NCBI GenBank assembly: GCA_945889495.1
Contig: CAMDBU010000059.1
Span: 1-32,809 of the forward strand
Source of the DNA: Syntrophobacter sp. SbD2
GTDB lineage: Bacteria; Desulfobacterota; Binatia; UBA9968
Length of the DNA: 32,809 bases
Direction of reading: 5' to 3'
Shown: in pieces, positions 252 through 26,576 of the stretch
Position numbering within the stretch: position 1 is the stretch's first letter
Layout: every line of letters begins with the position of its first letter
Program-made: the position numbers and the translations under genes
Notes under the pieces: generated by a model
What the model was told of the DNA's origin: nothing
Database searches by the model: none
What the model saw: the letters and a program-made list of their open reading frames with translations, nothing else

Positions 252-332
252 GGAATCTACGCTGTTTTACCGGCGCTTTGCAATCTTTTCGCCGCTTCTG
301 CTATGGTCGCGGGACTTAGTGAATTGCCGCTC

Positions 333-1295
333 ATGCTCCGATTGTCACTGATACTTTTGCTGCTTCTCGGCTCAACTGCGCCGGTCTCGGCCCAGAGCCA
401 TGATAAGGCGATCATCGCCCACACCAGCGAGAGCATCAGTTTGGCGCCGCTCCTGTTCGGCATCGAAAAAGGTTTTTACCGCAAGGAAGGCGTCGATTTG
501 GATTTCCGTATCCTGCGCACCGATCTGGCTAGCGCGGCCATGGTCGGCAGCCGGGAAGTGGACTACATGTATTCCGCCGGCACGGCGCTGCGGGTAGCCG
601 CGCGCGGCTTGCCGATCAAAGTAGTCGCCTACACGCTGAAAAATATTCTTTTCTATTTGATGGCCCAGCCGAGCATCAAGACGATCCCAGAGCTCAGGGG
701 CAAGAAAATCGCCGTGGCGCTGCCGTCGGACACCGGCGGACTGGCGACCAAGGCAACGCTCAAGGCTTTTGGCCTCGATCCAGAAAAGGATGTTACTTAC
801 ATCGCCATCGGCGCGGCGTCGACTCGGCTCGCCGCCATGGAAGCGCGCTCCATCGAAGCGTCGATCATGCCGGTGCCGTGGAATATTCGCATGAAGCAGA
901 GCGGTTTCACTGAGCTCGCCTTCGCTGGCAATCATCTCAAGGAACCGCTCACCGGTTTTTCCACCAGCGTCGAAAAGCTCGATAAAAATCCCCAACAGGT
1001 GCGCCGGGTATTGCGCGGCTACCTGCGCTCCCTGCGGGCGTTTCGCCAGGATAAAAAAGACGCGGCGGAGTTCATCGCCCGGCGTTTTCGTCTCGATCTC
1101 GCGGTGGCCGAAGAGTCCTACCGGATCGTTTTGCAATCGCTCAGCGACGACGGCACCATCAGCCAGACGAGCTTGCAGGAATTCATCGAGCAAGTGCGCA
1201 AGGAGCCGGGGATAAAGAAGCAAGTGACGGTCAACGACTTGGTCGACTTTCGAATTCTACACGAAGCCGCGAAAGAGATTGACGGCAAGTCCTAA
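333..1295 (+). CDS. ABC transporter substrate-binding protein, NMT1/SsuA-like
   Basis: A 320-residue exported binding protein. I chose ATG 333 over the upstream ATG at 303 because it gives a clean signal peptide: a short positive start, a run of leucines from about residue 5, and a cleavage site near AQS around residue 21. The mature part has the periplasmic-binding type 2 fold signature of NMT1/THI5-like proteins: LAPLLFGIEKGFYRKEGVDL near the N-terminus, a central 'ELRGKKIAVALPSDTGG' segment, and 'GLDPEKDVTYIAIG' before the second lobe. It should bind a small organic ligand outside the inner membrane for an ABC importer. No permease or ATPase gene is nearby. It is divergent from the amidohydrolase-like gene at the left edge. 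The ligand is unknown; related proteins are often labelled nitrate, sulfonate, taurine or thiamine-precursor binding without proof. Confidence 0.88.
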   Translation: MLRLSLILLLLLGSTAPVSAQSHDKAIIAHTSESISLAPLLFGIEKGFYRKEGVDLDFRILRTDLASAAMVGSREVDYMYSAGTALRVAARGLPIKVVAYTLKNILFYLMAQPSIKTIPELRGKKIAVALPSDTGGLATKATLKAFGLDPEKDVTYIAIGAASTRLAAMEARSIEASIMPVPWNIRMKQSGFTELAFAGNHLKEPLTGFSTSVEKLDKNPQQVRRVLRGYLRSLRAFRQDKKDAAEFIARRFRLDLAVAEESYRIVLQSLSDDGTISQTSLQEFIEQVRKEPGIKKQVTVNDLVDFRILHEAAKEIDGKS

Positions 1296-1341: not shown

Positions 1342-1776
1342 GTGGAATGGCTATTTCAAACAACCGATACTTTGGCGTTTCTATTTCTTCGTTTTGGATT
1401 GGCGGTGACGTTTTTCATGCATGGGACGCAGCATGCCTTCGGCTGGCATGGCGGCAAGGGCGCCAAGTCGCAGGTCACCGGCTGGCGCGATAAGTACGGC
1501 ATCCCGCTGCCGATGGGTATCTTGGCCCTGGTGATCGAGCTGTCAACGGTGGTGTGCATGGCGATCGGCTTTTTCGTCCGGCCGGTGGCGCTGGGTTTGG
1601 CGGGGTTTATGCTGTTCGCGACCTTTCTGAGCCACTGGGAGCATGGTTTTTTTCTCGCTTCAGCGCCGGGCAAAGGCAGTGGCATTGAGTACACCATGGC
1701 GTTGACGCTGATGGCCTTGACGATCACAGTCGGCGGCGCCGGTGCGCTGTCGGTGGACATCATGTTGGGCCGGTAG
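1342..1776 (+). CDS. DoxX family membrane protein
   Basis: A 144-residue membrane protein starting at GTG 1342, which follows a strong purine-rich ribosome-binding site (GAGGGGGG, about 1326-1333). Four hydrophobic segments are visible at about residues 10-28, 55-75, 80-98 and 115-138. The conserved 'RFGLAVTFFMHGTQHAFGW' start and a glycine-rich loop are typical of DoxX/YphA proteins (about 130-150 residues). DoxX relatives include a subunit of archaeal thiosulfate:quinone oxidoreductase and proteins linked to redox homeostasis; most bacterial members have no defined reaction. The gene lies 46 bp after the binding-protein gene on the same strand and could share its transcript. A candidate terminator follows at 1807-1840. 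Confidence 0.88.
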   Translation: MEWLFQTTDTLAFLFLRFGLAVTFFMHGTQHAFGWHGGKGAKSQVTGWRDKYGIPLPMGILALVIELSTVVCMAIGFFVRPVALGLAGFMLFATFLSHWEHGFFLASAPGKGSGIEYTMALTLMALTITVGGAGALSVDIMLGR

Positions 1777-1806
1777 GGTTCCGGTTTTGCTCGGGGCTTC
1801 GATGAC

Positions 1807-1840
1807 GGTCGCGTTGCCGGTTCACAGCGCGACCATTTTT
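1807..1840 (+). terminator. Candidate rho-independent terminator after DoxX gene
   Basis: A 7-bp G/C-rich stem, GGTCGCG (1807-1813) with CGCGACC (1828-1834), encloses a 14-nt loop and is followed directly by ATTTTT. It lies 31 bp after the DoxX stop. The loop is long for a terminator, so this is a moderate call. Confidence 0.45.
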
Positions 1841-1896
1841 CTCGCCCAGTAGTTTTTCCATTCCCAGGGACTCCCAGGCAGGTTACAATCTTCGGT

Positions 1897-2613
1897 ATGG
1901 CGACTAAAGGCGTCACCGAATTGGCTTCCTTCGAGCGCTGCCGCAGCTGCACTGCGGAGCTCAGTCCCGGCCGCGAGACCTGTCCCGCCTGCGGCACATT
2001 GGTGCCGCGCTCACCCAGTAACACCCCAGCCAAACCCCGTTGGTCGACCGGCCGAAAGATCAGTCACGCCATCATCTTCGCGCTTCTAGTGCTGGTTGCT
2101 AACATGTACCGCCCTTACGTCGAGCCTTATTTGAGGCTCATGTGGCCGCCGTGGCTGGCGCCCTACGTCGGCGAAGCGATGAGCCGCGTGGAAGCGAACA
2201 AATATGCCATCGCCATGCTCGGCGCGCCGGTGAGTCATAGCCGCTTCGTGCGCGGTGGTTTGCGCCGGTTCGATGAGGAATCGGCATCGGCGCAGTTTCG
2301 CGTCGCCGTTAGTGGCGCCAGCGGTAATGGCACGCTGCAAGCAGCCCTCGCCAAAATCGATGGCATATGGGCGTTTTCCCAACTGCGCTTGACCCTTAAT
2401 GGCAACGGCAAGGTTGTCGATCTCCTAGACCTCGCCGACCAGCCGGCGCGCACCGCGATTGAAACCGATCGCAAGGTTTATTTGGTTCCACTGGGCGATG
2501 TCGACCAAGAGGCGGTCGGGTTAACAGAGTTGCCGGAATTTTACCGCAAGAAGTTCAATCTCGAAATCAAACTGCTCCCGCCCATCGCCATCGAAGAAAA
2601 GGCATGGGATTGA
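1897..2613 (+). CDS. Zinc-ribbon, single-TM, Coa1-like protein; 5' part of a split chimeric gene
   Basis: The 238-residue product has a zinc ribbon at about residues 15-32 (CRSC and CPAC pairs) and one membrane helix at about 54-71 (AIIFALLVLVANMY). A region at about 95-175 resembles Coa1/Tim21-type domains ('AIAMLGAPV', 'FRVAVSGASGNGTLQAALAKIDGIW'). The last 45 residues ('VYLVPLGDVDQEAV...KKFNLEIKLLPP') look like the beginning of an archaemetzincin (M54) domain. The frame ends at TGA 2611-2613, yet the next ORF continues in exactly the same frame with what reads as the next part of that domain. I therefore infer one ancestral gene, 1897-4065, interrupted by a single in-frame stop. The product would be a membrane-anchored protein with a cytoplasmic zinc ribbon; its role is unknown. 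Domain names come from recalled patterns, not a search. Confidence 0.7.
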   Translation: MATKGVTELASFERCRSCTAELSPGRETCPACGTLVPRSPSNTPAKPRWSTGRKISHAIIFALLVLVANMYRPYVEPYLRLMWPPWLAPYVGEAMSRVEANKYAIAMLGAPVSHSRFVRGGLRRFDEESASAQFRVAVSGASGNGTLQAALAKIDGIWAFSQLRLTLNGNGKVVDLLDLADQPARTAIETDRKVYLVPLGDVDQEAVGLTELPEFYRKKFNLEIKLLPPIAIEEKAWD

Positions 2614-2619
2614 AAGCGC

Positions 2620-2635
2620 CGGCAATTGATTGCCG
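2620..2635 (+). other. Perfect hairpin 6 nt after the in-frame TGA
   Basis: CGGCAA (2620-2625) and TTGCCG (2630-2635) form a perfect 6-bp stem around the 4-nt loop TTGA. It begins six bases after TGA 2611-2613, inside the region where the two halves of the chimeric gene join in frame. It could affect termination, readthrough or reinitiation, or be chance. As a bacterial selenocysteine (SECIS) element it is poor: the stem is short, the loop is close to the UGA, and there is no G in the first two loop bases. Confidence 0.5.
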
Positions 2636-2640
2636 AGGAG
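2635..2640 (+). promoter_or_regulatory. Possible reinitiation ribosome-binding site for the 3' half of the split gene
   Basis: GAGGAG ends 12 nt before ATG 2653, the first ATG after the in-frame TGA. The spacing is long but usable, so the downstream half could be translated separately. The same bases also encode Glu-Glu in the continuous frame, so the site may be fortuitous. Confidence 0.35.
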
Positions 2641-2652
2641 TTGGTCGATCTC

Positions 2653-4065
2653 ATGCGGCGCCGTTTGCCGCACTTGGCCAAGGATTCCAAAGCGGTGCTC
2701 ATCGGCGTCACTCGCGAGGATATGTATTATCGCAAGGGTAATTGGAACTTCGCGTATAATTTTTGGTGGGACCAGGCCGGTTTGGTATCGAGCCATCGAT
2801 TAGACGAGGAATCGTCCTCACCGGCGGCAAAACAACGGGTGAAGTCAAGAGTTCGCAAGATAACCAGCCGAGTGGTCGGCACTCTTGTTTACGACCTACC
2901 GCGCAGCGAGGATCCGACGAGTGTCTTGGCAAAAGAGCTTTACGGTTCGTTTAGCGCCGATCTGATGTCGGACGAATTCGACGGACTCGGCTCGCTGGCG
3001 GTGATCGATGGTTTCACTCGCTCCCATTGGCTGCCGGCGTTCACGCCGACGGTCACACCGGCGGCGGTCAATGTTGACGCCAAGCTTGTCGACGGCGGTT
3101 ATCCCTGTCTCTTGGTGCGGCGTGACCGGAGTTCCGGTTCGCCAGCGACGAGTTGGCAGGCAAAAGTCACCAAGTGTTTGCCGCAAACCTATACGGATGT
3201 CGAAGTCGATGAATTGGAAATCGATCTGCGCAGCGGTTTGTTGATGACCCGTGAAACTGATTTGTTTCTCGGCGGCGCCCCACCGATTGCGGCGACGCGC
3301 TGTTTTCGCTCATGGGAAAGCCGCATTCGCACCTTCGGCTATAATCGAGGCATGTCCTGGGATATCTACCCAATTGGCAGTCGCAATCCGTACACCTATA
3401 TCGACGTGATTCTTTGCGATCGAAGAGAGATTCATTTTGAGCGTATTTCAGAGGGTACGGATTACGCCAACGCGCTCTACGAACATAAAGGTACCGCAAC
3501 ACCGTTCCTGGGCGCCCGTTTCGGCTGGACCGGCAACGGTTGGGACCTGGGCCGGTCCGATGGCACGCATATGTATTTTCCTGAATCCTACAATGCTAAG
3601 CGCGCCGTCGATGGAGGGCTCGTCGCTTTCACCGGTGCTAAAGGCGAAGTGGTCACGCTGCAGCGAGACAAGCTGCGCAACCTGCGCCAGCTCTCGACTG
3701 CCGACGGTCGGGAGATGCACTTCGAATACGATGCATTGAATCGCATCTCCAAGGCGACTGATAATCGTGGCCGAAGCGCCGAATACCAGTATGATATGGC
3801 GGCTCGGTTGGTCAAAGCAAAGACTCATGCTGCCGACCGGCGCTACACCTATACGGGTATGTACTTGGAATCGATGCTGGAAAATGGCCAGCGCCTTTTC
3901 CAGTTGCGTTACCATCAGGGACGGGTTCTTGAGCTTATCCTAGCCAGCGGCCAGAGCTACAAGTTGCGTTATGATCCTGATCCGCGCCAGGCTGACCCGG
4001 TGCAAATCTATCTCATCAGCCCAGACGGCAAAACTGAGAAATTCACCATTCCGCCGAAAAAATAA
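2653..4065 (+). CDS. RHS/YD-repeat protein with archaemetzincin-like N-terminus; 3' part of the split gene
   Basis: I chose ATG 2653 because GAGGAG lies upstream; TTG 2626 is the alternative. The frame is the same as the gene before the TGA. The N-terminal ~100 residues ('AVLIGVTREDMYYRKGNWNF', 'AGLVSSHRLDEES', 'GTLVYDLPRSEDPTSVL') resemble an archaemetzincin fold, but the HExxHxxGxxHC zinc site is absent, so it is probably not a protease. The rest is an RHS-type region: an aromatic-rich pre-repeat domain ('DLFLGGAPPIAATRCFRSW', 'ARFGWTGNGWDLGRSDG') followed by YD-like repeats ('GREMHFEYDALNRISKATDNRGRSAEYQYD'). It stops after only a few repeats and carries no recognisable toxin tip, unlike large polymorphic RHS toxins. 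Without the upstream half it has no signal or membrane anchor. The RHS assignment is firm; the archaemetzincin-like part is moderate. Confidence 0.75.
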   Translation: MRRRLPHLAKDSKAVLIGVTREDMYYRKGNWNFAYNFWWDQAGLVSSHRLDEESSSPAAKQRVKSRVRKITSRVVGTLVYDLPRSEDPTSVLAKELYGSFSADLMSDEFDGLGSLAVIDGFTRSHWLPAFTPTVTPAAVNVDAKLVDGGYPCLLVRRDRSSGSPATSWQAKVTKCLPQTYTDVEVDELEIDLRSGLLMTRETDLFLGGAPPIAATRCFRSWESRIRTFGYNRGMSWDIYPIGSRNPYTYIDVILCDRREIHFERISEGTDYANALYEHKGTATPFLGARFGWTGNGWDLGRSDGTHMYFPESYNAKRAVDGGLVAFTGAKGEVVTLQRDKLRNLRQLSTADGREMHFEYDALNRISKATDNRGRSAEYQYDMAARLVKAKTHAADRRYTYTGMYLESMLENGQRLFQLRYHQGRVLELILASGQSYKLRYDPDPRQADPVQIYLISPDGKTEKFTIPPKK

Positions 4066-4128
4066 TATTTGACGATTCGATTATCTGAGAGAATTCGCAG
4101 CGCGCGCCACGAATCGATGGTCTTGTGC

Positions 4129-4614
4129 CTACTGCAATTTCCTCTGCAACTCTTCGGTCAACTGGGCGAGTTCGCGGTCGGCGGGATTGATCTCCAGGGC
4201 GCCGCCGAATTCCTCCAGCGCTTTTTGAATCATGCCTTTGGTCAGATAGACCCGGCCGAGATTGATGTAGGGGAAATGGCGCGGCTCGTAGCATTTGGCG
4301 TTTTTCGCCCGCTCGAGCCAAGGAATGGCGTCGTCGAGCTTTTGCTGTTGCATGAGATACACGCCGATGTCGTTGTAGGGGTTGCCGAACTCGGGGTCGA
4401 GCTCGATGGCGATCTCGCATTGGGCGATGGCTTCGTTCAACCGGCCCTTAAAGCTGTAGGCCCAGCCGAGGTAGGTATGGGCGTCGGCGGTGGGATAGAG
4501 CGCGATGGATTCTTTGTAGAGCCGGATGGCGTCGTCGAACTCTTCCGCCATCTGCAGCTTCATCGCCTCGCCGATCAGTTCGATGGCGCGCTCTTGGTCT
4601 TTGGTGGTGGCCAT
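4129..4614 (-). CDS. Tetratricopeptide repeat protein
   Basis: A 161-residue protein made almost entirely of about four TPR units (roughly residues 8-41, 45-75, 78-110 and 114-146). The typical small/large residue pattern is clear: 'AIRLYKESIALYP', 'YLGWAYSFKGRLNEAIAQCEIAIELDP', 'YINLGRVYLTKGMIQKALEEFGGALEINP'. There is no signal peptide or other domain, so it is probably a soluble protein-binding scaffold in the cytoplasm. Its partner cannot be deduced. It starts 37 bp after the SDR gene on the same strand, so the two may share a transcript, and it is convergent with the RHS gene. Confidence 0.85.
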   Translation of the reverse strand: MATTKDQERAIELIGEAMKLQMAEEFDDAIRLYKESIALYPTADAHTYLGWAYSFKGRLNEAIAQCEIAIELDPEFGNPYNDIGVYLMQQQKLDDAIPWLERAKNAKCYEPRHFPYINLGRVYLTKGMIQKALEEFGGALEINPADRELAQLTEELQRKLQ

Positions 4615-10556: not shown

Positions 10557-10744
10557 AAGGACAAAATAAAAAGCTACATTAAGTGGGCGCGATGGAGCTG
10601 TCAATCTGCGCGGAGCGGTTTGCATGCGCTTTGGGGCAATTATAAATTGCCTCACGAACACCAACGGGCTGGTGGAGCTTGCCGCGCTCGTGTCACGGGC
10701 ATGCGGCTAATGCGAACGATCGTTGGTTGGTAGAGGGACTATTC

Positions 10745-11728
10745 ATGAAGACAGTAATTTTAGCGCTTTGCTTGAGCCTATCGCTCTGGTCTGCCAACGG
10801 TTTCGCCCAACTCGGCAAACTCACAGTGAGCTACAGCTCCATCGCGGCGGCCAATTTGCCACTGTGGCTGGCCAAGGATGCCGGCCTGTTCGCCAAGAAC
10901 GGGCTCGACGTCCAGTTGGTTTATATTCGTGGCGGCACCACGGTCATGATGACGCTGTTGTCGATGGAGACGCCGATCAGCCAGACCGGCGGCTCATCGA
11001 TCGTTAGCGCTAACCTGCGCGGCGCCGATGTGGTGATGATCGCCGGTGGCAACGCGACCACCGATTGGTGGCTGCTCAGCCGACCGGAGATCAAAACCGG
11101 AGAACAGCTGCGCGGCGGCGCGGTGGGCATCGCGGTGTTCGGCGGAAGCTCGGAGATCTTCGCGCGCTTGGCGCTGAAAAAGTTGGGACTAACGGCGATG
11201 AAGGACTTGGCGCTGCTCCAGATCGGCGGCATGGCCGAGCGGCTGAGCGCCTTGGAAAGCGGCCGGGTGAAGGCGGTGATCCTGCCGCCACCGGATGCCT
11301 TCATCGCCCAGAAGCGGGGCTTCAACACCTTGGCCCATGTGGCGCAGCCGTTTCAAACCTCAACTCTGGCGAGCTCGCGTCGCTATATTCGCGAACAGCC
11401 GGAGACCGTCAGACGCTTCGTCAAAGCGCAGATCGAGGCGGTGCATCGCATGAAAGTGGACCGTGACCTCGGTCTGAAAATTCTCGCCAAGTACAGCGGC
11501 GCGCAGGACCGGGAGATTGTCGAGAAGAGCTACGACTTCCAAGCGAGCGACGACAAACTCTCGCCCAAGCAGTATCCGACGTTGGAGGGGATTCGCAATA
11601 TTCTCGACGCCCTCGCGCCGGCTGAGCCCAAAGCCAAAACGGCGAAGCCGGAAGACTTCGTCGACGTGAGCTTTATCCGCGAGCTTGACCAGAGCGGCTA
11701 TATCGACGGGCTGTACAAAAAGAAGTGA
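10745..11728 (+). CDS. ABC transporter substrate-binding protein, NMT1/SsuA-like
   Basis: A 327-residue exported binding protein. ATG 10745 follows AGAGGG (10732-10737, 7 nt spacing) and opens a clean signal peptide (MKTVILALCLSLSLWSANG, cleavage after FA near residue 21). The mature protein begins 'LGKLTVSYSSIAAANLPLWLAKDAGLFAKNGLDV', the usual first lobe of this family, and continues with 'ADVVMIAGGNATTDWWLLSRPEI', 'GIAVFGGSSEIFARLALKK' and 'LGLTAMKDLALLQIGG'. It would capture a small ligand in the periplasm. It is one of six such genes in the window without permease or ATPase genes, and it converges with another member at 11741-12709 (12 bp between stops). The ligand is unknown. Confidence 0.87.
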   Translation: MKTVILALCLSLSLWSANGFAQLGKLTVSYSSIAAANLPLWLAKDAGLFAKNGLDVQLVYIRGGTTVMMTLLSMETPISQTGGSSIVSANLRGADVVMIAGGNATTDWWLLSRPEIKTGEQLRGGAVGIAVFGGSSEIFARLALKKLGLTAMKDLALLQIGGMAERLSALESGRVKAVILPPPDAFIAQKRGFNTLAHVAQPFQTSTLASSRRYIREQPETVRRFVKAQIEAVHRMKVDRDLGLKILAKYSGAQDREIVEKSYDFQASDDKLSPKQYPTLEGIRNILDALAPAEPKAKTAKPEDFVDVSFIRELDQSGYIDGLYKKK

Positions 11729-11740
11729 GCGCCGGCCATC

Positions 11741-12709
11741 CTATTTGATGCCGAGCTCCTGGTTCACTTCGCGCTGCAAGCTGAAATCGAAAATCTTTGC
11801 CGCCGCCACCGGCTCCTTGAGTTTCAACACGTCGACTTCGGCGCGGAGAAAATCATCCACTTCCTTGTCGGTGGGTAGGCCATTGGTGGTGAAGGCCGGG
11901 CGGGCGAGCTTGTAGGATTCCAGCGCCACGGCCATTTCCACATTCAAATATTTCGCCAGCACTTCGGCGGTGCCCCGTTCGTTTTCCAACAGATAACGGT
12001 GCGCCCGGGCGCGGGCGCGCAGGATGCGTTTGACCAGGTCGCGCTTCTCACGCACGAGCTTTTCGGTGAAGGCCAGGCCGTTTTGCAGGTTGGGCAGGTC
12101 GTCGAGAGTGCTGCCGTGGATGCGCAGCTTGAATTTATCGCGGGCGAGAATCACCGTCGGCGGCGACAGGGCGGCCAAGTGAATCGTGCCGCTGATCAGG
12201 CTTTGCAATTGCGCCGGCACATCGCCGCCGATCACCATAGTGATGTCTTTGTCGGTGTCGAGGCCGGCCCTGTGCAACAGGCGTAGACCGGCCAAGTGCT
12301 GGGCGCCACCGAAGGTGGTGGTGCCGAAGGTTTTGCCTTTGAGCTCGGCCAAGGATTTGATATCCGGCTTGGTCACCAGCCAGAAGAGATTTTTCTTGAG
12401 GCTCTGGGACATCACCTTGACCGGCAGTTCGCTGCGCTCCATGGCGCGGATCACCGTGCCGACGTTGTTCACCGCATGGGCATCGCCGCTGAGCAGCGCG
12501 GTGACGCCGATGTTGCCGCGCACCTGAACGACATCCGCCAGCAGTCCTTCTTGGCGGAAGAATCCGCGCTCCTGGCCGATGTAGAGATCCACCGAGGCGA
12601 TGCTCCGGCTCGGGTAGGTGATGACGATGCGATCGAGCGGTGTCTGGGCCTGTGCCGCGGCGCCGGTGGCGAACGCGAACCAAGCGAGCATGGCGAATGT
12701 AAGTTTCAT
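11741..12709 (-). CDS. ABC transporter substrate-binding protein, NMT1/SsuA-like
   Basis: A 322-residue exported binding protein. ATG 12709 is preceded by GGGAG and gives a signal peptide (MKLTFAMLAWFAFATGAAAQ). The frame is open to 12748, but that adds only an atypical extension. Family features are 'IVITYPSRSIASVDLYIGQERGFFRQEGLLADVVQV', 'SLAELKGKTFGTTTFGGAQH' and 'GLDTDKDITMVIGGDVPAQLQSLISG', with a C-terminal half full of Arg/Lys-rich helices ('VKRILRARARAHRYLLENERG'). It should work in the periplasm as the ligand receptor of an ABC importer, or as an orphan receptor. It converges with the paralogous gene at 10745. The ligand is unknown. Confidence 0.87.
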   Translation of the reverse strand: MKLTFAMLAWFAFATGAAAQAQTPLDRIVITYPSRSIASVDLYIGQERGFFRQEGLLADVVQVRGNIGVTALLSGDAHAVNNVGTVIRAMERSELPVKVMSQSLKKNLFWLVTKPDIKSLAELKGKTFGTTTFGGAQHLAGLRLLHRAGLDTDKDITMVIGGDVPAQLQSLISGTIHLAALSPPTVILARDKFKLRIHGSTLDDLPNLQNGLAFTEKLVREKRDLVKRILRARARAHRYLLENERGTAEVLAKYLNVEMAVALESYKLARPAFTTNGLPTDKEVDDFLRAEVDVLKLKEPVAAAKIFDFSLQREVNQELGIK

Positions 12710-12777
12710 TTGGCTCCCGATATTTAGTGGAAAAGTCCTGGATGTCAACCGAGCTTAGGGTGCCAGCGCGGCGTCTC

Positions 12778-24625: not shown

Positions 24626-25573
24626 ATGATCCAAGTGCTTGTCACGTTCGCCATTGTGGCATTGCTCCAGTCGGCGGTTTACGGCGCCGAGAAGATCCGC
24701 ATCGGCTTCCCGGAGTTCAACTCGTCGACGTTTACCCTGCCGATGGCGCACCTCAAAGGCTTCTTTCATGAGGAAGGGCTGCAAGCCGAGCTGATTCGCA
24801 TCCGTTCGGCCATCGCCTTGCCGGCGCTGACCAGCGCTGAGATCGATTACCACACCGTGGTGGCGCCGGCGGTGACCGCGGCGTTGCGTGGCATTCTGGT
24901 GCGCGTGGTTGCTTGCTTCACTCCGGGGCTGACTACGGCGATCATCGCGCGGCCGGAGATCAAAACCGTGCAAGAGCTCAAAGGCAAGGTTATCGGCCTT
25001 AACAGCATCGGCGGCGGCTTGGAAAGCACGGTGCGGATTATGCTCAAGCATTACGGCCTCGATCCTGACAAGGATGTGAAGTTTCTCGCCACCGGCGGCA
25101 TCGACACGCGTTTCGCGGCGTTGAAACAGGGCTTGACCCACGCGACGGCAGGTTCGACGCCGGCCGATTATCTCGGCAAGAAGTTTGGCTATGTCGTTCT
25201 GGCGCGGGCCTACGATCTGTTTAGCTATCCCAACACCGGATTGGTCGCCAGCGTGAAGAGCATTAAAGAGAATCCCGACCGGCTCAAGCGCGTTATCAAA
25301 GCCGGCATCAAAGCCAACCGCTACATCCTGCAAAACCGCGAAGGCACGATCCAAGTGATGATGCAGTGGATGCGCATCGACCGGGATACGGCGGTGGCGA
25401 CTTATGATGGTTCGCTGAAGTCCTTCAATGACGATGGCGCGGTGTCCGACGCCGGCCTGCGCATCGCCATCGACGAATCGCGCAAGGCGATCAATATGAC
25501 CCGCGAAGTGGCGTTCAGCGAGGTGGCGGATTTCGCCATGTTGCGCGAAGCGCAGCGGGAGCTGAGCAAATGA
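24626..25573 (+). CDS. ABC transporter substrate-binding protein, NMT1/SsuA-like (first of a tandem pair)
   Basis: A 315-residue exported binding protein. ATG 24626 follows GGAGGGTGAGAA. The signal peptide is short (MIQVLVTFAIVALLQSAVYG, cleavage near 20-21). The mature protein has 'KIRIGFPEFNSSTFTLPMAHLKGFFHEEGL', 'EIDYHTVVAPAVTAALRG', 'RPEIKTVQELKGKVIGLNS' and 'HYGLDPDKDVKFLATGG', then 'GIKANRYILQNREGTIQVM'. It should bind a small ligand in the periplasm. The next gene encodes a clear paralogue along its full length, so the pair arose by tandem duplication. No transporter subunits are nearby. The ligand is unknown. Confidence 0.88.
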   Translation: MIQVLVTFAIVALLQSAVYGAEKIRIGFPEFNSSTFTLPMAHLKGFFHEEGLQAELIRIRSAIALPALTSAEIDYHTVVAPAVTAALRGILVRVVACFTPGLTTAIIARPEIKTVQELKGKVIGLNSIGGGLESTVRIMLKHYGLDPDKDVKFLATGGIDTRFAALKQGLTHATAGSTPADYLGKKFGYVVLARAYDLFSYPNTGLVASVKSIKENPDRLKRVIKAGIKANRYILQNREGTIQVMMQWMRIDRDTAVATYDGSLKSFNDDGAVSDAGLRIAIDESRKAINMTREVAFSEVADFAMLREAQRELSK

Positions 25574-25604
25574 TTTTGGATTGCCGATTTTGGATTTTGG
25601 ATTG
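25574..25604 (+). repeat. Short direct repeats between tandem binding-protein genes
   Basis: The 37-bp gap between the paired genes is made of repeats of GATTTTGGATT and TTTTGGATT separated by a GCC. They look like slippage-derived simple repeats. They lie just before the ribosome-binding site of the second gene. Confidence 0.6.
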
Positions 25605-25610
25605 AGGAAG

Positions 25611-26576
25611 ATGGCCCGTATGCGGATGGCACTAATTATATTCGCAGCACTTCTGTTTCAGCCGTCATTGCACGCCGCCGACAGGATCCGCATCTCCATG
25701 ACCGGCTTTGCCGGGCAGTTCATGACCTTTCCGCTGGCGCAGAAGCGTGGGTTTCTAAGAGAGGAAGGTTTTGACGCTGAGATCATTCGCATCGCGGCGG
25801 CGGCGACGCGGCCGGCGCTGACCAACGGCGATATCGATTATTCGACCGGGATTGGCGGGACCTCGATCAATGCGGCGCTCAGCGGTGTGCCGATTCGCGT
25901 GGTCGCCTGCTTTGTGCCGGTGCCGGTGCTCGGCCTGGTGGCGCGGCCGGAGTTCAAAACCATTCAATCGCTCAGAGGCAAGACGGTGGCGATTCTAATT
26001 CCCGGCGGTGTGGCTCATTTCGCCGCCCGCGCCATGCTCAAGCATGGTGGCCTCGATCCAGAAAAGGAAGTTAAGTACATCGCCTCCGGGCCGCCCGATG
26101 CTCGCTATGCGGCATTGACTCAGGGATTAGTTGAAGCGGCGATTCTCGGGCCGCCGCTCGATTTCGAGGCGCGCAAGCAGGGTTACAACATTCTCTCGCG
26201 CGCCGATGAGGTGATGGTTCTCCCCGAGACCGGCTTGGTCGCCGCGGTTAAGAAGATCCAAGAGAAGCCCGATGAGATCAAACGGGTGATTCGCGCCGGC
26301 ATCAAAGCCAACCGCTACATCCGCGCCAACCGCGATGGCACGGTGCAGTTCTTGACCGAGTGGTTGAAACTCAACCGCGAAGCCGCCGCGGCGACCTACG
26401 ACAGCGTGGTGCGGGTCTACAATGAAGATGTCGGCATCTGTGACAAAGGCCTGCGCTCGATCACCGAGGAGACTAAAAAGGCCATGAAGTTGAGCCGCGA
26501 TGTGCCTTACGGCGAGGTCGCCGAACTGGGGATTTTTCGCGAGGCGCAGCGGGAGTTGAACAATCAACCCCGGTAG
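25611..26576 (+). CDS. ABC transporter substrate-binding protein, NMT1/SsuA-like (second of a tandem pair)
   Basis: A 321-residue exported binding protein. ATG 25611 gives a signal peptide (MARMRMALIIFAALLFQPS, cleavage near HA-AD); GAGG at 25604-25607 also suits ATG 25620, so the exact start is uncertain. It aligns with the preceding protein throughout: 'IRISMTGFAGQFMTFPLAQKRGFLREEGF', 'RPEFKTIQSLRGKTVAIL', 'HGGLDPEKEVKYIASG', 'VIRAGIKANRYIRANRDGTVQFL' and 'EVAELGIFREAQRELNN'. The binding-pocket loops differ between the two copies (for example 'LNSIGGG' against 'LIPGGVA'), which suggests different ligands. It is probably co-transcribed with the first copy. Confidence 0.88.
   Translation: MARMRMALIIFAALLFQPSLHAADRIRISMTGFAGQFMTFPLAQKRGFLREEGFDAEIIRIAAAATRPALTNGDIDYSTGIGGTSINAALSGVPIRVVACFVPVPVLGLVARPEFKTIQSLRGKTVAILIPGGVAHFAARAMLKHGGLDPEKEVKYIASGPPDARYAALTQGLVEAAILGPPLDFEARKQGYNILSRADEVMVLPETGLVAAVKKIQEKPDEIKRVIRAGIKANRYIRANRDGTVQFLTEWLKLNREAAAATYDSVVRVYNEDVGICDKGLRSITEETKKAMKLSRDVPYGEVAELGIFREAQRELNNQPR

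What the first reader, a model, noticed from the sequence alone, without database searches (positions are those of the whole stretch)
2600..2660. In-frame TGA splits a chimeric gene, with a perfect hairpin 6 nt downstream
The frame from 1897 stops at TGA 2611-2613, and the next ORF continues in exactly the same frame to 4065. The residues on either side (…LPPIAIEEKAWD, stop, KRRQLIAEELVDLM…) read as neighbouring parts of one archaemetzincin-like domain. A perfect hairpin, CGGCAA/TTGCCG, begins 6 nt after the TGA, and GAGGAG precedes an ATG at 2653. Options are a sequencing error, a recent nonsense mutation (for example CGA to TGA), programmed readthrough, or a real split into two coupled proteins. 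Selenocysteine is unlikely because the stem is short and no Cys-type site is expected there.
Basis: partly seen in the sequence, partly recalled or inferred. Interest (0 to 1): 0.6.

Follow-up and report, generated by a model that had tools for sequence, protein, structure and literature searches.

The report
Stop codon breaks one bacterial gene
A single stop codon interrupts an otherwise intact, rare and fast-changing bacterial gene; it looks like an ordinary recent mutation or a sequence error and not a special decoding signal, even though the same bacterium appears to read this codon as selenocysteine elsewhere.

Summary
In detail: TGA 2611-2613 ends an ORF starting at 1897, the same frame stays open to 4065, and CGGCAA-TTGA-TTGCCG starts 6 nt downstream. 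It is one gene with one stop. The syntenic orthologue in a same-genus genome is one unbroken 721-aa ORF, 51% identical end to end. A Terriglobia relative with the same archaemetzincin-like + RHS layout is also unbroken. In a search of 395 genomes of the phylum only the window's copy has an internal stop (37 of 37 other places have none). The site is a variable column: 30 informative rows, no Cys, no Trp.

The genome has selA, selB, selD and tRNA-Sec, and its SelD has an in-frame TGA. The hairpin is not kept in relatives and forms in only some folds.

The frame after the stop shows no extra decay: 36 unique changes against 36 in the sister. So the stop is recent, an error, or tolerated by leaky readthrough. 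Best reading: a recent nonsense mutation (or base error) in an accessory gene. Reads would decide.

The parts
1897..2613 (+). 5' part of the gene: zinc-ribbon motif, one membrane segment, Coa1-like domain, start of the archaemetzincin-like domain; ends at the TGA
   Evidence: ORF 238 aa; Pfam Coa1 E 1.8e-7 at residues 89-178; Zn_Ribbon_1 E 2.1e-4 (below its cut-off). The membrane segment is read from the sequence by eye
2611..2613 (+). in-frame TGA; the orthologue has Leu (CTC), the two Terriglobia relatives have Glu (GAG)
2614..4065 (+). 3' part in the same frame: rest of the archaemetzincin-like domain, DUF6531-like stretch and RHS repeat
   Evidence: RHS_repeat E 5.3e-11; YD_repeat_2x E 1.3e-6; archmetzin E 1.1e-5 (profile 46-131, below its cut-off); DUF6531 E 0.0037, below its cut-off
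2620..2635 (+). CGGCAA-TTGA-TTGCCG hairpin; probably coincidental, it lies in codons for the conserved stretch RRQLIA
   Evidence: formed in one of three folds; not present in the orthologue
2602..2656 (+). predicted larger stem-loop, arms 2602-2613 and 2645-2656, enclosing the hairpin
   Evidence: z -2.75 for 2596-2670; not formed in the other two folds of that call and not kept in relatives
1342..1776 (+). DoxX-family gene directly upstream; the same neighbour precedes the orthologue
   Evidence: 84% identity in the same-genus genome

Best explanation
1897-4065 is a single gene for a membrane-anchored zinc-ribbon / Coa1-like / degenerate archaemetzincin-like / RHS-repeat protein. In this genome it carries one recent nonsense mutation (TGA) at a variable codon inside the archaemetzincin-like domain. 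The main product would be a 238-aa fragment holding the membrane segment and only the first part of the domain. A small amount of full-length protein may still be made, because UGA is the leakiest stop and this codon position tolerates many residues. The hairpin plays no required part. Shown: one gene in relatives, one stop here, a variable site, no further breaks, no acceleration after the stop. Inferred: that the TGA is real and recent, and its effect on the product.
For: Orthologue in G001, same neighbour gene DoxX, unbroken over 721 aa, 51% identity. Unbroken 765-aa relative L035. 0 of 37 other places in the phylum search carry an internal stop; by their match ranges 35 of the 37 reach the site's column. 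Site column in 30 informative rows: P8 E6 V5 R4 and one each of L, S, T, K, Q, I, A. Gene is accessory: domain found in 2 of 148 class genomes, both of this genus, of which 5 genomes were searched (one only 67% complete). Fast evolving: 49-53% identity against 84% for DoxX. No decay after the stop: changes unique to the window 36, to the sister 36, of 452 columns, with L035 as outgroup. TGA is a normal stop here (of 200 open stretches of at least 350 codons 69 end in TGA, 70 in TAA, 58 in TAG, 3 run off an end; antisense shadows included).
Against: A base error in the assembly would look the same. The lack of decay is also what tolerated or regulated readthrough predicts. Only one close orthologue was found, so the timing cannot be set; dS to it is saturated (2.9 for the 5' part, not computable for the 3' part), and the outgroup is distant, so the rate test has little power.
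Confidence: 0.55

Rival explanations
1. Base-calling, consensus or strain-mixture error in the assembled genome; the living bacterium has a sense codon there.
For: The genome is 239 contigs at 95.6% completeness and 2.7% contamination; no further break in 483 codons; no acceleration after the stop. A related Terriglobia MAG copy (L036) has its own frame break, a 1-nt insertion in a T run.
Against: Single-base substitutions are rarer than indels in most consensus sequence (recalled; the sequencing method here is unknown). 0 of 10 control same-frame ORF pairs from a 433-kb sample showed a Pfam domain across the stop, so there is no sign that such breaks are frequent here, though the control is small.
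Confidence: 0.27
2. Tolerated or regulatory readthrough: UGA lowers the dose of the full-length protein, which is still made and selected; the enclosing stem may help.
For: Same substitution counts as the sister after the stop; the Terriglobia pair is under purifying selection, dN/dS about 0.24 and 0.27; a variable residue column would accept many inserted residues; predicted stem containing the UGA, z -2.75 in one of three folds. In E. coli reporters TGA was the leakiest stop, mean 0.5-5.6% in minimal medium by temperature (PMC11126739, passages read); in-frame stops shared by bacterial orthologues with dN/dS below 1 are reported (PMC7918605, abstract and passages). Recalled and not checked: older E. 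coli work in which A after UGA, as here, favours readthrough.
Against: Among the genomes searched the stop is in this one alone; neither stem is kept in relatives; the following base is A, not the C described as inefficient for UGA (PMC5289835, abstract and start of the introduction); the one tRNA-Trp found has a normal 5-bp anticodon stem.
Confidence: 0.1
3. Two separate, translationally coupled proteins: the second starts at TTG 2626 or ATG 2653.
For: GAGGAG at 2635-2640; a terminating ribosome at the TGA would open the stem that holds ATG 2653 (inference).
Against: The break lies inside one domain; the homologues that span the site have one ORF across it; the GAGGAG encodes the conserved Glu-Glu and is GAAGAA in the sister; its spacing to ATG is 12 nt; the second protein would lack the membrane segment and the first part of the domain.
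Confidence: 0.06
4. Selenocysteine insertion at the TGA.
For: selA, selB, selD and tRNA-Sec are present and SelD has an in-frame TGA; there is a possible hairpin after the TGA.
Against: 0 of 30 informative homologue residues is Cys; no Cys near the site in the translation; the stem starts 6 nt after the TGA with a UUGA loop, and the stretch after the SelD TGA folds differently; no Rfam match in the window.
Confidence: 0.01

Closest known systems
Nonsense-interrupted bacterial genes / recent pseudogenes, including in-frame stops kept in functional genes (PMC7918605)
   Same: One in-frame stop aligned with sense codons in orthologues, good alignment on both sides
   Different: Here the stop was not found in a second genome, the criterion that paper used against artefacts
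Archaemetzincins (structures 3zvs, 4axq, 2x7m)
   Same: Weak profile matches (E 0.011-0.068) and a low-confidence model point to them; the stretch around the site aligns with typical family members
   Different: No HExxH motif in any of the four archaemetzincin-RHS proteins; joined to RHS repeats and, in the window's genus, to a zinc ribbon and Coa1-like domain
RHS/YD-repeat proteins
   Same: One RHS repeat above the Pfam cut-off
   Different: Very short repeat part, no toxin domain among the Pfam or NCBIfam matches, and an N-terminal membrane segment (by eye)
Bacterial selenoproteins (here SelD of the same genome)
   Same: In-frame TGA in a genome with Sec machinery
   Different: No Cys homologue and no matching stem-loop seen at this site

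Membership tests
Gene interrupted by a nonsense mutation | single stop aligned with a sense codon in an otherwise collinear orthologue | tested here: met
Gene interrupted by a nonsense mutation | stop is present in the organism's DNA and not an error | not testable with these tools
   no reads and no second strain
Gene interrupted by a nonsense mutation | relaxed selection after the stop | tested here: not met
   36 v 36 unique changes after the stop; expected if the stop is very recent
Selenoprotein | Sec machinery in the genome | tested here: met
   tRNA-Sec 73 bits, selB 411 bits, selA 615 bits, selD 383 bits, each over its cut-off
Selenoprotein | Cys or Sec at the site in homologues | tested here: not met
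   0 of 30 informative rows
Selenoprotein | SECIS-type stem-loop at the usual distance | tested here: inconclusive
   a hairpin is possible but forms in one of three folds; the SelD stretch folds differently, and its own signal was not mapped; no SECIS model was run beyond Rfam
Programmed stop readthrough | stop and stimulating structure kept in related genomes | tested here: not met
Programmed stop readthrough | full-length protein made | not testable with these tools
   needs expression data
Archaemetzincin | HEXXHXXGXXHCX4CXMX17CXXC zinc motif (PMC3427221, start of abstract seen in the listing) | tested here: not met
   no HExxH in the four archaemetzincin-RHS proteins; HExxHxxG present in 22 of 29 other loci
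Archaemetzincin | sequence match over the family cut-off | tested here: not met
   sister 30 bits against 145
RHS-repeat protein | RHS repeat over the Pfam cut-off | tested here: met
   43 bits against 22

The most novel reading that the evidence does not exclude
The UGA, held in the long stem 2602-2656, acts as a leaky valve: most ribosomes make a membrane-anchored 238-aa fragment, and a condition-dependent minority (cold, starvation) reads through to make the full archaemetzincin-like/RHS protein, with the variable residue position making the inserted amino acid harmless.
Probability: 0.05. Interest if true: 0.5.

Novelty: new member of a known kind. Interest (0 to 1): 0.15.

Why it matters
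Mostly as a caution: a TGA with a hairpin after it in a genome with selenocysteine machinery looks like recoding, but homologues show an ordinary variable residue there. The protein layout itself (zinc ribbon, Coa1-like, archaemetzincin-like domain without HExxH, RHS repeat), shared from the archaemetzincin-like domain onward with Terriglobia MAGs, may merit annotation; one paper search on the word archaemetzincin gave 24 papers, and none of the 15 listed titles names such a fusion, which is no proof that it is undescribed.

Tried and rejected
Selenocysteine: rejected on the residue column, not on machinery, which is present. A suppressor or unusual tRNA: one tRNA-Trp(CCA) found by pattern, normal 5-bp anticodon stem; a UCA pattern found two places, tRNA-Sec on C78 and one on C82 that was not examined further, against six for the reversed control pattern. 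The patterns could miss other tRNAs. Genome-wide TGA reassignment: rejected, TGA ends 69 of 200 long open stretches. Many other split genes: of 410 same-frame pairs with both sides at least 80 codons, 76 passed the codon score on both sides, the window's own site among them; of the other 75, 14 were inspected by eye and 10 of these scanned, 0 of 10 with a Pfam domain across the stop; the four not scanned looked like antisense shadows, and 61 were not inspected. The same screen did not list the SelD TGA, so it misses stops near a gene's start. Sec-type Mo enzymes by PF00384: 9 matches, none with a stop. Mobile or phage origin: the 3' part has no match in the phage records and the domain none in the viral contigs that tblastn confirmed. 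First genome-contig scan with the whole protein found nothing; the second, with the domain, gave two Terriglobia loci. Structure model of the domain was poor (mean pLDDT 46); its three best PDB hits were archaemetzincin chains but at TM 0.28-0.30 of the query, so it is weak support only. What stands behind DoxX in the other genus members: only a 37-residue DoxX-like end at a contig start in G002, with no match to this gene better than E 0.07 in the 1,617 bases held. Promoter and terminator scan of 1700-4300: three promoter-like and six terminator-like sites against 1.5 and 2.8 expected, no use made of them.

Full report
Observation. The ORF from ATG 1897 ends at TGA 2611-2613; the same frame is open from 2614 to TAA 4063-4065. 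The hairpin CGGCAA-TTGA-TTGCCG lies at 2620-2635. A perfect 6-bp hairpin (loop 3-8) starting 3-12 nt downstream is found at 1.8% of window positions, so it is not remarkable once the site was chosen for other reasons. Of three folds, 2596-2670 puts the TGA at the inner end of a 12-bp stem around that hairpin (z -2.75, 2 of 200 shuffles as good); 2611-2660 (z -2.02) and 2611-2710 (z -0.98) fold otherwise and do not form the hairpin.

One gene. The protein begins with a zinc-ribbon-like motif and what I read as one membrane segment, then a Coa1-like domain (Pfam E 1.8e-7), then an archaemetzincin-like domain and an RHS repeat (E 5.3e-11). A search of 58 genomes, the own one included, found full-length similarity in the own genome and in one other of the genus, G001; 9 of 58 had some match, the other seven partial (all seven in the RHS part, G014 also in the N-terminal part). 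The G001 copy is one ORF of 721 aa, 51% identical from end to end, behind the same DoxX gene. In Terriglobia MAGs (named by their record titles; whether the window's bacterium shares their phylum was not established), L035 has one ORF of 765 aa with the same domain and RHS layout; L036 has it with a frame break elsewhere, a 1-nt insertion in a T run. The TGA falls inside the archaemetzincin-like domain: the sister's match to that family covers residues 193-326 across the site, and the break would separate its first part from the rest.

The site. In 395 genomes of the phylum, drawn from a larger group, 34 have the domain at 38 places; only the window's place carries a stop. Aligning the 29 loci fetched (of the 37 other places) with the sister and two Terriglobia copies gives 30 rows with a residue at the site: P 8, E 6, V 5, R 4, and one each of L, S, T, K, Q, I, A; two rows do not reach it. 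There is no Cys and no Trp. The position follows a mostly Asp or Asn residue (His or Glu in a few) and precedes a mostly kept R-x-Q; it is itself free to vary.

Selenocysteine. It is there: tRNA-Sec (73 bits; anticodon TCA by ARAGORN), selB (411 bits), selA (615 bits) and selD (383 bits), the last three in a row on contig C26. SelD itself has an in-frame TGA within the match to the family, in ...KSAG-TGA-AAKLGPGD..., so the bacterium very probably does insert selenocysteine (inference; that this is the usual Sec/Cys place in SelD is recalled). The window's TGA differs: no Cys homologues and no Cys nearby, and a different fold after it, though the SelD signal itself was not mapped. No Rfam family reaches its threshold anywhere in the window.

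Readthrough otherwise. TGA is a common normal stop here (69 of 200 long open stretches). The one tRNA-Trp found has a normal 5-bp anticodon stem; a 4-bp stem raises UGA readthrough in E. coli, while mutations in the anticodon seem to be the main bacterial route (PMC13092985, passages read); a pattern for such an anticodon found only tRNA-Sec and one unexamined place, no more than the control. The base after the TGA is A, not the C named as inefficient for UGA termination (PMC5289835, abstract and start of the introduction); that A favours readthrough in E. coli is recalled and was not checked. Low readthrough is in any case to be expected: E. coli reporters with TGA gave means of 0.5-5.6% by temperature in minimal medium (PMC11126739, passages). 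Neither the hairpin nor the longer stem is kept in the relatives.

Age and selection. With L035 as outgroup, after the stop 36 residues are unique to the window and 36 to the sister (452 columns); before it, within the domain, 4 and 5 (47 columns). So there is no sign of decay after the stop; the outgroup is distant and the power low. In the Terriglobia pair the gene is under purifying selection (dN 0.055, dS 0.235; after L036's break 0.085 and 0.312). Between the window and G001 the gene is far less conserved than DoxX (49-53% against 84%), and its domain was found in 2 of 148 class genomes. An accessory, quickly changing gene is where a recent nonsense mutation is easily carried.

Background. 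In a 433-kb sample of the genome, window included, I looked for other genes cut by one stop: 0 of 10 scanned same-frame pairs had a Pfam domain across the stop; they were ordinary neighbours such as the two tryptophan synthase subunits. This is a small control chosen by eye (10 of 75 other scored pairs), and the screen did not list the SelD TGA, which lies near a gene's start; but it gives no hint of frequent TGA splits.

Verdict. An ordinary single-stop interruption of one gene: recent nonsense mutation 0.55, base error 0.27, tolerated or regulated readthrough 0.10, two proteins 0.06, selenocysteine 0.01. [quoted passage not shown] The four archaemetzincin-RHS proteins lack HExxH, so the domain is probably not a working protease (inference).

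Noticed in passing
G000 contig C26, L066:13803-18241: selA-selB-selD run; SelD carries an in-frame TGA at L066:17246, so this bacterium probably makes a selenium-containing SelD.
   Followed up: partly
L036:5809-5830: The Terriglobia relative L036 has its own frame break in the same gene family, a 1-nt insertion in a T run compared with L035; error, mutation or slippage.
   Followed up: partly
window 1897-4065; L003; L035; L036: Four proteins join an archaemetzincin-like domain without HExxH to an RHS part; the layout is shared by the window's genus and Terriglobia MAGs, and I know of no name for it.
   Followed up: partly
window 2602-2656: Near-palindromic 12-bp stem whose left arm ends exactly with the TGA; it has two G-U pairs, one of them at the first base of the TGA.
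   Followed up: partly
window 303-1295, 10679-11728, 24626-25573, 25581-26576, 11741-12748 (-): Several NMT1/THI5-like substrate-binding protein genes in one window, with similar ones on the G001 contig (Pfam for the first only; similarity of the others to the same G001 places by tblastn).
   Followed up: no
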